Shown here: one piece after another, positions 10,187-14,040 of the stretch | How positions within the stretch are numbered: position 1 is the stretch's first letter | Layout: each line of letters starts with the position of its first letter | Origin: Alcanivorax sp. DP30 | GTDB taxonomy: Bacteria; Pseudomonadota; Gammaproteobacteria; Pseudomonadales; Alcanivoracaceae | Direction: 5' to 3' | Length of the DNA: 64,000 nucleotides | Assembly: GCF_009882945.1 (NCBI RefSeq) | Contig: NZ_WTUY01000002.1 | Span: 188,927 to 252,926, forward strand | The notes under the pieces: model-generated | Database searches by the model: none | Told to the model about the DNA's origin: nothing | The model's input: only the letters and a program-made list of their open reading frames with translations | Translations under genes and position numbers: made by a program

Positions 10187-10318
10187 GAACGCTGTGCCTG
10201 ACGCCGGACAGATCGTCGGGCGTCGGGCGAATTTTGCGCTCTGCCGGAGGCTTGATGCCAGGAGCCAGTAGCGACCACCTCTCCAACGCTCAACGTCATT
10301 TTCTCTTTTTTCGTAACG

Positions 10319-10347
10319 TTTACCTCACACCTGCATCTCTATATTGT
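10319..10347 (+). promoter_or_regulatory. Possible sigma-70 promoter of the hvf operon
   Basis: TTTACC (10319-10324), a 17-bp spacer and TATTGT (10342-10347), each matching four of six consensus bases, about 95 bp before the hvfA start. The rest of the 262-bp gap holds a GACGCC/GGCGTC hairpin just after the KAS III gene and nothing else that I recognise. Copper- or ECF-sigma control, known for some relatives, is not evident from a motif here. Confidence 0.3.
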
Positions 10348-10448: not shown

Positions 10449-10742
10449 ATGGCTAAGCTGACTAAACTGAATCCCCTGGCCGCGACCGTAGGCGCTGCAG
10501 TTGTTGCTTCCGCTCTGGCTGCCCCGGTAGCTAGCGCCGCAGAAAACCCCTTCGCAGCCGCCGACCTGCAGGCTGGCTACCAGCTGGCCGCCCACGCTGA
10601 AGGCAAGTGTGGTGAAGGCAAATGCGGCGACAAGAAAGCCGAGGGCAAGTGTGGCGAAGAGAAAGGTGCCGAAGGCAAGTGCGGTGAAGACAAGAAAGGC
10701 GAAGGGAAATGTGGTGAAGGCAAGTGCGGCGGTGATGCATAA
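10449..10742 (+). CDS. hvfA: HvfA-type RiPP metallophore precursor with six EGKCG motifs
   Basis: A 97-residue secreted precursor peptide. Residues 1-30 form a Sec signal peptide (hydrophobic from residue 10; AxA-type site VASA before AENPF). The C-terminal half is a low-complexity array with EGKCG at 51-55, 56-60, 65-69, 75-79, 85-89 and 90-94, spaced by Lys/Glu/Asp linkers. In the characterised family the cysteines in this motif are converted to oxazolone and thioamide groups that bind copper. Six cysteines (54, 59, 68, 78, 88, 93) are available. ATG 10449 is chosen over 10434 because GGAG at 10436-10439 is properly spaced. It is the first gene of hvfABCX. Confidence 0.88.
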   Translation: MAKLTKLNPLAATVGAAVVASALAAPVASAAENPFAAADLQAGYQLAAHAEGKCGEGKCGDKKAEGKCGEEKGAEGKCGEDKKGEGKCGEGKCGGDA

Positions 10743-10754
10743 GGCTGCGCTGAA

Positions 10755-11597
10755 ATGAACCATAAGACACCAGTGTCCGGTGTGGGCCTGGGTCTTCGGC
10801 GGGCCCTGATGGGCCCGCTTTCCCGCACCGAATCCCCACCTATCGATTTCATGGAAGTGGCTCCGGAAAACTGGATTCCCATGGGCGGACGCCTGGGTAA
10901 GGAATTCAGGAAATTCACGGAGCGGTTTCCGTTTGTGAGCCATGGGCTAAGCCTTTCCCTGGGCGGCCCGGAGCCTTTGGACTTCGAGTTACTGGCGTCC
11001 ATCAAGGCTTTTCTGAGTGAGCACAATATTCGTCGTTACACCGAGCATCTCAGCTACTGTAGCGACCATGGTCACCTCTATGACCTGATGCCGATCCCCT
11101 TTACAGAAGACGCTGTCCATTATGTGGCGGACCGGGTTCGCCAGGTTCAGGATTTTCTCGAACAGCCCATTGGCATTGAGCATGTAAGCTATTATGCCGC
11201 TCCCGGCGCAGAAATGTCCGAGATCGACTTTGTTAACGCGGTGGTCAAGGAAGCGGATTGCGAGTTGTTGCTGGACGTGAACAATGCTTACGTGAACAGC
11301 ATTAATCATGGCTATGATCCCTATGAATTCATCAGCGCGCTACCCGGCGAGCGAATCTGCTATGTCCATATCGCTGGCCATTTTGATGAGGCTGAAGATC
11401 TCAAGGTCGATACCCATGGCAGTGCGGTAATCGATCCTGTCTGGGATCTGCTACAACATGCTTATCAGGAGTTTGGTGAATTGCCTACCTTGCTGGAGCG
11501 TGACTTCAATTTTCCCGGTGAAGATGAACTGTTTGGAGAGCTTCGCCAGATTGCCGCTTACCAGCAAAAATATCAGTCTCGGGTAAAGTTGGGATGA
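10755..11597 (+). CDS. hvfB: HvfB-type MNIO (DUF692) peptide-modifying enzyme
   Basis: A 280-residue TIM-barrel enzyme of the multinuclear non-haem iron oxidase (DUF692) family; in this context it oxidises the Cys residues of HvfA. Likely iron ligands are visible in family order: Glu34 in MEVAPENW, His63 in VSHGLSLSLG, His98 in TEHLSY, Glu142 in IEHVSYY, Asp174/Asn176 in LLDVNNAYVN, His205 and His209 in YVHIAGH, Asp219/His221 in DTHG, and Glu248 in LLERD. It starts 12 bp after hvfA and overlaps hvfC by ATGA, indicating translational coupling. Cytosolic. The assignment of individual ligands is from pattern, not structure. Confidence 0.93.
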   Translation: MNHKTPVSGVGLGLRRALMGPLSRTESPPIDFMEVAPENWIPMGGRLGKEFRKFTERFPFVSHGLSLSLGGPEPLDFELLASIKAFLSEHNIRRYTEHLSYCSDHGHLYDLMPIPFTEDAVHYVADRVRQVQDFLEQPIGIEHVSYYAAPGAEMSEIDFVNAVVKEADCELLLDVNNAYVNSINHGYDPYEFISALPGERICYVHIAGHFDEAEDLKVDTHGSAVIDPVWDLLQHAYQEFGELPTLLERDFNFPGEDELFGELRQIAAYQQKYQSRVKLG

Positions 11598-12361
11598 GTG
11601 ACGCAAACTTTCAGGTGCTGCAGCGCGAGTTTGCCAGTCACCTGCGTAATCCTGATACCCGTTCTTCCCCCGAAGGCATTGAAGAGCGGCGCCTGGAAAT
11701 CTATCGCAGCCTTTTCTTCAACAACGTTAATGGTTTCATCCAGCAGGGCTTCCCGGTTCTGTATTCTATTCTCTCTGCTGAACGTTGGGGCAGGTTGGTC
11801 AGAGCCTTTTACGAACACCACACTTGCACGACTCCCTACTTTCTGGAAATCCCCCAGGAATTTATCTCGTTTCTCGCCAGTGGCAAGGGCAGCGAAGAAG
11901 GTGATCCTCCTTTTCTGCTCGAACTGGCTCACTATGAGTGGATGGAGCTGGTGCTGGATGCCTCCACGCAAACACTTCCTGAAACCGGGTTTCACCCTGA
12001 GGGAGATTTACTGCGCGCCATTCCGCAGCTTAGCCCTCTGCATGCAGTGCTGGCTTATCACTATCCGGTGCAGCAAATTTGTCGTGACTTCCAGCCCGCC
12101 GAACCATTGCCTCAACCGGTATGGTTGTTGGTGTATCGCAATCGCAATGATGAAGTGAGATTCATGGAGATCAATGCGCCCACTGCGCGCTTGCTTCAAC
12201 TGATTGAGGAATATCCGGAGCTGACCGGACGAGAAGTGGTGGGGCTATTAGCCCAGGAAATTAAGTTTGATGTTGATCAGCTGGCAGAATTTTCTCGTGG
12301 CATTCTGCAACAAATGCGCGAGCGCGACATCCTTATAGGAACAACACTGAAAAGCTGTTGA
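11594..12361 (+). CDS. hvfC: HvfC-type (DUF2063) RiPP maturation partner
   Basis: A 255-residue protein with the N-terminal DUF2063 helical domain (LQREFASHLRNPD, RRLEIYRSLFFNNVNGF), the partner that binds the precursor and delivers it to the DUF692 enzyme in related bufferin and HvfA systems. The C-terminal part (about residues 180-250) has a winged-helix-like region, LLQLIEEYPELTGREVV. Its ATG overlaps the hvfB stop (ATGA), so the two are probably made in fixed ratio. No catalytic motif is expected in this family. Confidence 0.9.
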   Translation: MSDANFQVLQREFASHLRNPDTRSSPEGIEERRLEIYRSLFFNNVNGFIQQGFPVLYSILSAERWGRLVRAFYEHHTCTTPYFLEIPQEFISFLASGKGSEEGDPPFLLELAHYEWMELVLDASTQTLPETGFHPEGDLLRAIPQLSPLHAVLAYHYPVQQICRDFQPAEPLPQPVWLLVYRNRNDEVRFMEINAPTARLLQLIEEYPELTGREVVGLLAQEIKFDVDQLAEFSRGILQQMRERDILIGTTLKSC

Positions 12362-12506
12362 TTTCATGGCACCCGAGGCAGGGATAAAACAGTTTCGGGT
12401 TCCGGGGAGTGGGTTTTAAAAGGCAAAACGGGCATAGCGTTTCGCAACGTGCGCCGGGTAACCTGAATCCCGCCTCCTGCCATATCTTTTCCAAGGAGAA
12501 TCGTGC

Positions 12507-13160
12507 ATGCCTGCCCTGTTACATAAAGTCCACCACACCCTTAACACCACCCGCCTGGTGGATTTTCTGGCCCCGCTGGCGCTGAGGCTGTTTCTTGCGC
12601 CAGTGATGATTAGTGCTGGCTACAACAAGGCGATGAGTTTCGAGAGTACAGTGGCCTGGTTTGGCAACCCGGATTGGGGGTTGGGGTTGCCTGCTCCTGC
12701 GCTGTTGGCTTTTGTGGCCACTGCCACCGAGCTGGTGGGTGGGTTTCTGTTGTTGATTGGTCTGTTTACCCGTTACATCAGCATCCCGTTGATGTTCACC
12801 ATGCTGGTGGCCATGGCGACGGTGCATTGGGATAACGGCTGGTTTGCCGTCGCACCGGGTAACCCAGAGACCAGCATGGCGGCCCCACTGGCCAAGGTGG
12901 GCTTCCCGGGAGCCATGGCAAGTCTGGAGAACAGTGAACAAGTGGGTGAGCGCATCCAGCGGGCTCGCGGGATTCTCAAGGAACATGGCCATTATGGCTG
13001 GCTTACGGAAAAGGGGAGTTTTGTTGTCCTCAATAATGGCATCGAATTCGCCATGACGTACTTCATTATGCTGCTGGTGTTGTTCTTCCAGGGGGGAGGG
13101 CGGTATCTAAGCCTTGACTATTGGGTGGCGCGCAAGCTGCTGCTGACTCAAACAGTGTAA
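12507..13160 (+). CDS. hvfX: DoxX-family membrane protein of the hvf operon (HvfX type)
   Basis: A 217-residue membrane protein of the DoxX family with four predicted membrane segments (about residues 24-42, 63-85, 88-105 and 175-195). The conserved DoxX start RLFLAPVMISAGYNKA is followed by a family-typical insertion between helices 3 and 4. AAGGAG lies upstream of ATG 12507. It sits 145 bp after hvfC on the same strand; the fourth gene of hvf operons is usually such a protein and is thought to help copper-linked maturation or protection. The gap could hold its own promoter, since I see no terminator there. Confidence 0.82.
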   Translation: MPALLHKVHHTLNTTRLVDFLAPLALRLFLAPVMISAGYNKAMSFESTVAWFGNPDWGLGLPAPALLAFVATATELVGGFLLLIGLFTRYISIPLMFTMLVAMATVHWDNGWFAVAPGNPETSMAAPLAKVGFPGAMASLENSEQVGERIQRARGILKEHGHYGWLTEKGSFVVLNNGIEFAMTYFIMLLVLFFQGGGRYLSLDYWVARKLLLTQTV

Positions 13161-13224
13161 AAGCCGTTGGAGTTGCGTAAGCTGCCAGCGTTGGGTGTTA
13201 CGCAGCTGTTGTGGCCCCGATATA

Positions 13225-14040
13225 ATGAGCCGTTTTGGACTTGCCGGTTTAGCCGGGGTGACTGTGCGCTACCTGATACTGACATTATTGCTGAGCTTGC
13301 CAATGATCTCCTTGGCGGAAGAGGAAGATTGGGGTGAGGCCACTACGGCGTTTGATGCGCCGTCAGGCGGGGATCAGTACGCTGACCCCTGGCAAGACTT
13401 CAACCGCAAGATGTTTGCCTTCAACGAGTTCATGGATAAATACGGGCTCAAGCCTGTTGCCAAGGGCTATCGCAAGGCAACGCCGCAGTGGATGGATGAC
13501 ACCATCACGCGCTTCTACGAGAACCTGAGGGACTTCCGTAGTGGACTGAACAGCGTGCTGCAATGGCGATGGAACCACGTTGGTCAGAACTGGGGCCGCT
13601 TTGCCGTGAACAGCACCCTGGGTATCGGTGGACTGTTTGATGTGGCCACCAAGGTGAATCTTCGCAAACACAATACGGATCTTGGGCTAACGTTTGCACG
13701 TTGGGGGGTCCCGGAAGGCCCTTATCTGGTGTTGCCATTCTTCGGGCCTTCCACCGGACGGGATGCTGCCGCCATCCTGCCTGAAGATTACATGCGACTG
13801 CGTCACTACATTCAGCACGACCTGACCCGCCATAGTTTCACTGCTGTCTACGTGGTGGATTTACGGGCCGATCTACTCGATCTGGAGCGCAATATCGTCG
13901 GGGATCGCTATACCTTCCTTCGCAATGCCTACCTGCAACGCCGCCGTTTTGAGACTGGCGACATGCCGTCCCTGCGCTTCCCGGATATCGAGTCCAGAGA
14001 CAGTGAGTTGGAGCAGGAGTATGAGGACGAGGGGTGGTGA
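13225..14040 (+). CDS. mlaA: MlaA (VacJ) outer-membrane phospholipid-removal protein
   Basis: MlaA removes misplaced phospholipids from the outer leaflet and passes them to the MlaC/MlaFEDB retrograde path. The core is typical: DPWQDFNRKMFAFNEFMD, TRFYENLRDF, VNSTLGIGGLFDVA, DLGLTFARWGVPEGPYLVLP. The signal peptide LILTLLLSLPMISLA is not followed by a cysteine, so unlike the E. coli protein it is not an obvious lipoprotein. The start is uncertain: TATAAT at 13221-13226 overlaps ATG 13225. If that is a -10 box, the true start is GTG 13264, which would give a compact signal peptide. No other mla gene is nearby. Confidence 0.93.
   Translation: MSRFGLAGLAGVTVRYLILTLLLSLPMISLAEEEDWGEATTAFDAPSGGDQYADPWQDFNRKMFAFNEFMDKYGLKPVAKGYRKATPQWMDDTITRFYENLRDFRSGLNSVLQWRWNHVGQNWGRFAVNSTLGIGGLFDVATKVNLRKHNTDLGLTFARWGVPEGPYLVLPFFGPSTGRDAAAILPEDYMRLRHYIQHDLTRHSFTAVYVVDLRADLLDLERNIVGDRYTFLRNAYLQRRRFETGDMPSLRFPDIESRDSELEQEYEDEGW

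What the first reader, a model, noticed from the sequence alone, without database searches (positions are those of the whole stretch)
10449..13160. Complete hvfABCX operon: copper-linked RiPP with a six-fold EGKCG precursor
Seen: secreted 97-residue precursor with six EGKCG motifs and one Cys in each, then a DUF692 MNIO enzyme, a DUF2063 partner and a DoxX protein, with hvfB/hvfC overlapping. Known: HvfA-type precursors are modified at Cys by DUF692/DUF2063 pairs into oxazolone/thioamide groups that bind copper. Inference: a copper-buffering peptide with up to six sites, in which motif spacing varies (5, 9, 10, 10 and 5 residues between successive motif starts) and could allow binding of more than one metal ion.
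Basis: partly seen in the sequence, partly recalled or inferred. Interest (0 to 1): 0.75.

Follow-up and report, generated by a model that had tools for sequence, protein, structure and literature searches.

The report
Copper-binding peptide operon with stress promoter
This is a typical bacterial gene set for making a copper-binding peptide, of a recently described kind; the added point is a conserved stress-type promoter that may tie it to arsenic and thiol-repair genes elsewhere in the genome.

Summary
hvfA (10449-10742) encodes 97 residues with six EGKCG motifs at spacings 5, 9, 10, 10, 5, followed by hvfB, hvfC (4-nt overlap) and hvfX. It is a new member of a known kind: the EGKCG branch of MNIO-made Cu(I)-binding RiPPs (oxazolin, fontiphorin, gonophorin, bulbicupramide; "captophorins"). 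Motif number and spacing vary freely in relatives, so the spacing is no sign of designed multi-metal sites.

What I add is regulation. An ECF-type promoter, GTAAC-N15-GCATC, starts 136 nt before hvfA and is kept (at most 1 mismatch) at 36 of 43 family hvfA genes. The motif also precedes unlinked hvfX (10 of 13), arsS (30 of 30), gor (7 of 30) and, from inside the sigma gene, the anti-sigma gene (36 of 36). The best candidate reader is an unlinked ECF sigma with a zinc-type anti-sigma. Against a single reader: three genomes without an intact copy keep the arsS motif. Sigma control of hvf genes is already known in Haemophilus and Neisseria. Nothing here shows copper binding or induction.

The parts
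10313..10337 (+). predicted ECF-sigma promoter, GTAAC (10313-10317) - 15 nt - GCATC (10333-10337)
   Evidence: At most 1 mismatch in 36 of 43 family hvfA upstream regions, exact in 31; mononucleotide shuffles expect 0.23 and 0.01; spacers of 14 or 16 give 1 and 0 of 43 within 1 mismatch. With the trailing bases ATA or TA it is the only hit in the own genome
10436..10439 (+). GGAG, likely ribosome binding site of hvfA
   Evidence: read from sequence; conserved in the 17-row genus alignment
10449..10742 (+). hvfA, precursor peptide, 97 aa
   Evidence: NCBIfam KCGExKCG_twice over cut-off, HvfA equivalog below cut-off
10449..10538 (+). Sec-type signal peptide, residues 1-30, cleavage likely after ASA (by eye)
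   Evidence: sequence; not run through a predictor
10545..10580 (+). conserved segment NPF...GY (residues 33-44), candidate recognition segment for HvfC
   Evidence: NPF..GY pattern in 36 of 36 family and 65 of 69 wider distinct precursors; role inferred
10599..10730 (+). core with six EGKCG motifs
10755..11597 (+). hvfB, MNIO (DUF692) enzyme, 280 aa
   Evidence: NF003818 433.5 bits; PF05114; PDB 3bww match 1e-80
11594..12361 (+). hvfC, DUF2063 + RRE-type partner, 255 aa, overlaps hvfB by 4 nt
   Evidence: NF050145 307 bits; PF09836, PF22106; PDB 3dee match 9e-12
12507..13160 (+). hvfX, DoxX-family membrane protein, 217 aa
   Evidence: NF050144 237 bits; PF07681

Best explanation
The operon makes a periplasmic Cu(I)-sequestering captophorin. 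HvfC is inferred to bind the NPF...GY/signal region of HvfA, and HvfB, an iron enzyme using O2, to turn each of the six EGKCG cysteines into a 5-thiooxazole (4 H lost per Cys) before Sec export. The modified thiols then hold copper, probably several ions per chain in no fixed order. HvfX is a membrane helper of unknown role. Expression is inferred to start at an ECF promoter (GTAAC-N15-GCATC) read by an unlinked ECF sigma factor (own genome C23:76819-77436, minus) held by the small zinc-type anti-sigma encoded next to it. The same sigma would then switch on arsS, gor and a redoxin-like gene, so the peptide would belong to a thiol/metal(loid)-stress response. Shown here: genes, family membership, conserved promoter motif, the same motif at other genes. 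Inferred: modification chemistry, copper binding, export, and which sigma reads the motif. My estimates: captophorin operon 0.95; ECF promoter 0.85; read by this particular sigma 0.6.
For: Family models and gene order. Residues named for FonB (R15, R16, base D249, F250) have counterparts R15, R16, D250, F251 by motif and position, invariant in 13 of 13 aligned HvfB; FonB itself was not aligned. Promoter: 36 of 43 within 1 mismatch. Unlinked hvfX copies: 10 of 13 carry the strict motif 26-133 nt upstream, and 10 of 13 lie within about 0.5 kb of the sigma gene. Motif inside the sigma gene, 100-146 nt before the anti-sigma start, in 36 of 36 intact genes (27 exact); its Cys codon is TGT in 36 of 36 and its Ala codon GCA in 31 of 32, against GCA in 121 of 748 Ala codons. 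arsS 30 of 30 and gor 7 of 30 carry it. The hvfA motif goes with an intact sigma: 35 of 35 with, 1 of 8 without. Precedents: H. influenzae RpoE2 controls hvf genes under HOCl; Neisseria sigmaE lies in an operon with DoxX/DUF692/DUF2063 genes.
Against: No experiment on this peptide. HvfA equivalog model below cut-off. G019, G020 and G026 lack an intact copy of the sigma yet keep the arsS motif exactly, so another sigma may read it; G041 (64% complete) has the hvfA motif without the sigma. The sigma/motif association rests on only two clades that lack both. Three of 13 unlinked hvfX copies do not have the motif directly upstream or were not scanned (L189 none; L193 has it before another frame; L204 not scanned). 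No motif precedes the sigma gene itself, nor the ArsM-like gene behind it in the own genome. Five of the 11 strict motif copies in the own genome lie within other frames with no plausible target. gor lacks it in 23 of 30. In a rough scan of wider loci it appears in 10 of 76, all Alcanivoracaceae by title.
Confidence: 0.78

Rival explanations
1. Captophorin operon as above, but the GTAAC-N15-GCATC promoter is read by a different ECF sigma factor (or by more than one); the candidate sigma only happens to sit beside hvfX.
For: arsS motif exact in G019, G020, G026 without an intact candidate sigma; these three genomes have other ECF-like matches.
Against: The candidate's own gene holds the motif before its anti-sigma gene with biased codons; unlinked hvfX lies near it and carries the motif in 10 of 13; the hvfA motif is degraded or missing in the two clades lacking an intact copy.
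Confidence: 0.3
2. The peptide serves mainly reactive-chlorine, thiol or metalloid stress, with copper binding secondary.
For: Shared motif with arsS (arsenosugar radical SAM), gor (glutathione reductase) and a redoxin-like gene; H. influenzae hvf genes respond to HOCl through RpoE2.
Against: The EGKCG products described in the passages read bind copper; regulation by a stress sigma does not exclude copper as the target.
Confidence: 0.25
3. Methanobactin-like copper uptake: an exported chalkophore with oxazolone/thioamide groups.
For: Distant MNIO homology to MbnB (34 bits, cut-off 325).
Against: HvfB model far better (433 bits); Sec-type signal rather than a leader; PME1-type partner; related products reassigned to 5-thiooxazole.
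Confidence: 0.03
4. hvfA is only partly modified: the two single motifs (residues 65 and 75) are poor substrates compared with the tandem pairs.
For: FonBC modified a two-repeat but not a one-repeat minimal peptide, though length differed too.
Against: All six Cys of MmrA in Microbulbifer and each EGKCG repeat of oxazolin were modified; motifs at spacing 9-10 are common in the family.
Confidence: 0.15

Closest known systems
Oxazolin (HvfABCX, Haemophilus influenzae)
   Same: Six EGKCG motifs, Sec signal, MNIO plus RRE-domain partner plus DoxX-like HvfX; the NCBIfam models are named after it
   Different: Oxazolin has three AEGKCGEGKCG pairs; here pair, single, single, pair. HvfA equivalog score below cut-off. 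Its own promoter was not compared
Bulbicupramide (mmrABC, Microbulbifer)
   Same: Marine gammaproteobacteria, EGKCG precursor with 5-8 Cys, MNIO plus DUF2063; binds Cu(I)
   Different: Three two-Cys cassettes; the main text does not mention DoxX (0 occurrences)
Fontiphorin and gonophorin (captophorins)
   Same: EGKCG repeats, 5-thiooxazole chemistry, Cu binding; FonB specificity residues shared by motif
   Different: Seven sites in FonA; the fon cluster holds only MNIO, PME1 and precursor
H. influenzae RpoE2/HrsE and Neisseria sigmaE/NMB2145 regulons
   Same: ECF sigma with a small ZAS anti-sigma controlling DoxX/DUF692/DUF2063 genes; Neisseria consensus GTMAGBWTT-N12-13-CGTCTAAH has the same -35 to -10 distance as the motif here
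   Different: In Neisseria the sigma is in the operon, here it is unlinked; -10 here is GCATC; predicted targets here are arsS, gor, a redoxin-like gene and hvfX (msrAB was not looked for)
Bufferins under sigmaF/NrsF (Caulobacter)
   Same: ECF control of DUF692/DUF2063/DoxX genes; sigmaF site GTAACC-N16-CGAA
   Different: DUF2282 precursor; different -10; NrsF found in only 1 of 46 family genomes, not the own one

Membership tests
EGKCG captophorin / HvfABCX | Secreted precursor with repeated EGKCG motifs directly before the MNIO gene | tested here: met
   (KCGExKCG_twice 40.4 vs 19.5); signal peptide judged by eye
EGKCG captophorin / HvfABCX | Precursor passes the NCBIfam HvfA equivalog model | tested here: not met
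   NF050188 56.3 bits, cut-off 95: a relative of HvfA, not the narrow equivalog; the broader domain model is passed
EGKCG captophorin / HvfABCX | MNIO enzyme of the HvfB family | tested here: met
   NF003818 433.5 vs 360; 3bww; R15, R16, D250, F251 present
EGKCG captophorin / HvfABCX | PME1 partner (DUF2063 + RRE) | tested here: met
   NF050145 307 vs 142; PF09836, PF22106
EGKCG captophorin / HvfABCX | HvfX downstream (not obligatory in the family) | tested here: met
   NF050144 237 vs 80, 145 nt after hvfC
EGKCG captophorin / HvfABCX | 5-thiooxazole formation and Cu(I) binding | not testable with these tools
   needs mass spectrometry, NMR, metal titration
Methanobactin | MbnB-type MNIO | tested here: not met
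   TIGR04159 34.3 bits vs 325
Bufferin Buf1 | DUF2282 precursor and BufB-type MNIO | tested here: not met
   no DUF2282 hit; MNIO_BufB 244.5 vs 310
ECF sigma with ZAS anti-sigma (candidate regulator, outside the window) | ECF sigma with adjacent small anti-sigma bearing C-X23-26-H-X3-C-X2-C | tested here: met
   P0005 hits sigma70-ECF 93.2 vs 42.9; P0008 reads C4-X26-H31-X3-C35-X2-C38; the G001 copy of the anti-sigma hits NF052368 57.7 vs 50
ECF sigma with ZAS anti-sigma (candidate regulator, outside the window) | Orthology to H. influenzae RpoE2 or Neisseria sigmaE | not tested
   no sequence of those proteins was fetched
ECF sigma with ZAS anti-sigma (candidate regulator, outside the window) | It recognises GTAAC-N15-GCATC | tested here: inconclusive
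   association and shared motif against arsS motif kept without an intact copy in three genomes

The most novel reading that the evidence does not exclude
In Alcanivoracaceae a thiooxazole copper peptide is one output of a dedicated ECF/zinc-anti-sigma regulon, scattered over the genome, that also drives arsenosugar radical-SAM ArsS, the mobile helper HvfX, and in some species an ArsM-like methyltransferase, a small membrane protein of unknown family, glutathione reductase and a redoxin-like protein. The sigma gene carries the promoter of its own anti-sigma inside its coding sequence. This would recast captophorins of these marine bacteria as part of a general defence against thiol-reactive metals and oxidants.
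Probability: 0.5. Interest if true: 0.55.

Novelty: new member of a known kind. Interest (0 to 1): 0.38.

Why it matters
[quoted passage not shown] The regulatory link matters more. In my judgement the control of EGKCG captophorins is little studied outside Haemophilus and Neisseria; I saw no link to arsenic genes in the passages read, and one search aimed at it found none. Here control becomes directly testable in harmless oil-degrading marine bacteria, with a named sigma factor, a 25-nt promoter and a short list of predicted targets.

Tried and rejected
Methanobactin-type uptake: rejected on family scores. sigmaF/NrsF control as in Caulobacter bufferins: rejected, NrsF in 1 of 46 genomes (G022), not in the own genome. 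A dyad reading of the promoter (GTAA-N3-TTAC): exact in 30 of 43, but absent in more distant members that keep GTAAC-N15-GCATC (L032, L034, L037-L042), so the ECF reading is preferred. Sigma-70 promoter-like and terminator-like hits: 3 against 1.6 and 7 against 3.6 in shuffles, not used; a terminator-like hit in the hvfC-hvfX gap is inconclusive. A second promoter in the hvfC-hvfX gap: best hits have 1-4 mismatches, mostly inside hvfC coding sequence, not counted. A second ECF sigma (P0006): strong orthologues in 18 of 46 genomes only, missing from many motif-bearing ones, so the weaker candidate. A PDB search of the anti-sigma gave only chance hits. Recent repeat slippage in hvfA: the six repeats use different codons, no sign of it. 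The Acinetobacter SigAb promoter (GTCAAC, CGTT; PMC12153292, passages) differs. AlphaFold and fold searches were not used.

Rows dropped before counts: L045 (G025) and L046 (second MNIO of G022), 33-35% MNIOs with other precursors, were left out of the promoter and precursor counts; L192 (second sigma copy in G029), L194 (damaged, G026) and L204 (no sigma) were left out of the codon count; L059 has N in hvfA and gave no precursor. arsS and gor motif counts cover the 30 best of 33 strong arsS matches and of 44 gor matches. The wider promoter scan was rough: start codons were picked by rule and some loci without a clear precursor were scanned too. The 80 wider loci overlap the 46 family genomes in part. 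'Orthologue' of the sigma means E below 1e-60, my threshold.
Full report
1. Observation. The window holds hvfA (10449-10742), hvfB (10755-11597), hvfC (11594-12361) and hvfX (12507-13160), all on the + strand. HvfA is 97 residues: a signal-peptide-like start, a segment ENPFAAADLQAGYQLA, then six EGKCG motifs at residues 51, 56, 65, 75, 85 and 90. Pfam and NCBIfam name the enzymes and HvfX as expected. For the precursor the narrow HvfA equivalog model is missed (56.3 against 95 bits) while the broader repeat-domain model is passed (40.4 against 19.5).

2. Host and relatives. The window lies on an 847-kb contig (C20) of a 3.6-Mb genome. Named matches of HvfB include Alcanivorax nanhaiticus 89%, A. 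hongdengensis 86% and A. jadensis 84%, so the host is taken as an Alcanivorax species. The neighbouring frame 13195-14040 looks like mlaA/vacJ (by eye); a 2009 paper noted an association of the A. borkumensis DUF2063 protein ABO1516 with VacJ (PMC2954202, passage). Of 46 genomes of the family, 43 have an hvf-type hvfB (66-100% identity), one (G025) has only a distant MNIO (35%), and two (G030, G031) have none.

3. Precursor variation. 42 of 43 family loci gave a precursor (L059 holds N), 36 distinct cores, with 3-8 motifs; 70 of 80 wider loci gave 69 distinct cores with 3-13 motifs. The residue before Cys is Lys in 145 of 206 family motifs, else Ser 46, Thr 8, Arg 4, Ala 2, Asn 1. Ten of 36 family cores, the window among them, use Lys only. 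Spacing 5 is commonest in the family, then 10 and 9; no other core shares the window's order. Thus number and spacing drift, and the idea of a designed spacing finds no support. An NPF...GY segment is kept in 36 of 36 and 65 of 69 cores, and is my best guess for HvfC recognition (inference).

4. Chemistry from the literature. For oxazolin, fontiphorin and gonophorin the Cys modification is 5-thiooxazole, not oxazolone/thioamide (PMC13097082, parts 1-4 of 6 read; PMC13419390, passages). Copper binding is reported for fontiphorin and gonophorin, for oxazolin and for Microbulbifer bulbicupramide (PMC12538549, passages). HvfB of the window has R15, R16, D250 and F251, matching by motif the FonB residues R15, R16, D249 (base) and F250, all invariant in 13 of 13 aligned HvfB. 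FonB itself was not aligned.

5. A conserved promoter. GTAAC-N15-GCATC starts 136 nt before hvfA. In 43 family hvfA upstream regions it is exact in 31 and within one mismatch in 36; mononucleotide shuffles expect 0.01 and 0.23; spacers of 14 or 16 give 1 and 0 (genus alignment). The -35/-10 layout fits an ECF sigma. Published relatives: Caulobacter sigmaF GTAACC-N16-CGAA (PMC3511200, passage) and Neisseria sigmaE GTMAGBWTT-N12-13-CGTCTAAH (PMC2893595, passage), the latter with the same distance from its first G to the C of the -10. In a rough scan of 76 wider loci 10 are within one mismatch, all titled Alcanivorax, Alloalcanivorax or Alcanivoracaceae.

6. A candidate sigma. The own genome has an ECF gene at C23:76819-77436 (P0005) followed at once by a 76-residue protein (P0008) with the ZAS pattern C4-X26-H31-X3-C35-X2-C38 (the G001 copy is scored as antisigmaE). 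Its orthologue is in 37 of 46 family genomes, counting the damaged one of G026. Strong hvfX matches are in 29 of 46 genomes: behind hvfC in 16, elsewhere in 13. Of these 13, ten lie within about 0.5 kb of this sigma gene, two within 3.4 kb and one on another contig. Ten of the 13 have the strict motif 26-133 nt before hvfX; L189 has none, L193 has it before another frame, L204 was not scanned. The motif also lies inside the sigma gene, 100 to 146 nt before the anti-sigma start, within one mismatch in 36 of 36 intact genes (27 exact). There its codons are biased: Cys TGT in 36 of 36, where two other conserved Cys prefer TGC (86% and 78%); Ala GCA in 31 of 32, where GCA makes up 121 of 748 Ala codons. 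These genes are related, so the counts are not independent. The bias suggests selection on DNA, perhaps feedback through anti-sigma synthesis (inference).

7. Co-occurrence. With an intact sigma and hvf genes, 35 of 35 genomes have the hvfA motif (at most one mismatch); without an intact sigma, 1 of 8 (G041, 64% complete). In G026 an in-frame deletion fuses sigma and anti-sigma and its hvfA motif has two mismatches. Fisher p = 2.5e-7, not corrected for kinship: on the HvfB tree the motif-less rows form two clades, G019/G020/G026 and G032/G033/G036/G037.

8. Other targets. The own genome has 11 strict copies of the motif, against 1 for the pattern read backwards. Those placed before genes: hvfA; arsS (TIGR04167, 461 bits against 300); glutathione reductase (NF004776, 578 against 480); a redoxin-like membrane protein (model scores below cut-off); a YaeQ-like gene (by eye; no model hit); and the intragenic site. 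The other five lie within other frames. arsS carries the motif in 30 of 30 loci looked at (24 exact). gor carries it in 7 of 30, exactly the clade nearest the window, with diverged spacers. An ArsM-like gene (scores below model cut-offs) carries it in 4 of 15 sigma loci that have one (L171, L176, L183 exact, L203 one mismatch), not in the own genome. Result against the single-sigma model: G019, G020 and G026 keep the arsS motif exactly.

9. Known and new. Control of hvf-type genes by an ECF sigma with a ZAS anti-sigma is known: H. influenzae RpoE2/HrsE under HOCl (PMC7907618, passages) and the Neisseria rpoE operon (PMC2893595 and PMC2954202, passages). The survey PMC12452194 names sigma genes in bufferin clusters; ArsM and arsenite do not occur in its main text. 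Searches with Alcanivorax, copper, sigma-factor, MNIO and arsenosugar terms listed no paper on the regulation of this operon (listings only; the library lacks most subscription journals). So the operon is a new member of a known kind, and the dispersed regulon with arsS is the part that may be new.

Noticed in passing
L063 (G004), hvfB region; rows G004:C1:979368-980141 and 980150-980221: hvfB is read in two pieces, a break near codon 25; assembly error or true break unknown. Not mended.
   Followed up: no
L194 (G026:C21:16621-17163): In-frame deletion joins the end of the ECF sigma gene to the anti-sigma gene, giving one fused frame; the hvfA promoter of this genome has two mismatches.
   Followed up: partly
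L076 (G022), L034 (G044), L068, L069, L072, L074: Precursors with mostly or only EGSCG/EGTCG/EGACG motifs, Lys replaced before Cys; a natural test of whether Lys matters for HvfB.
   Followed up: partly
L110, L131 (Ectothiorhodospiraceae MAGs): EGKCG precursors with an EF-hand-like stretch (DADGDGS) inserted between repeats.
   Followed up: no
L145, L148, L157, L161, L165: hvfX-like gene lies upstream of hvfB and no EGKCG-type precursor was found before hvfB by my rule; possible different gene order or precursor.
   Followed up: no
L046 and G022:C23:110612-111744: G022 has a second, distant MNIO a few kb from a sigma-like match and a NrsF gene, perhaps a separate Caulobacter-type system beside its hvf operon.
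   Followed up: partly
L045, L193 (G025): G025 has no hvf-type hvfB but keeps hvfX within 3.4 kb of the sigma gene, and has a distant MNIO with a Cys-containing precursor.
   Followed up: partly
L176:3857-4255 (G001): Small membrane protein behind the anti-sigma gene, DoxX-like only by eye (no Pfam or NCBIfam hit), with the strict motif 58 nt upstream.
   Followed up: partly
sigma loci L166-L203: Promoter-like motif inside the sigma gene with biased codons; possible intragenic promoter for the anti-sigma gene.
   Followed up: yes
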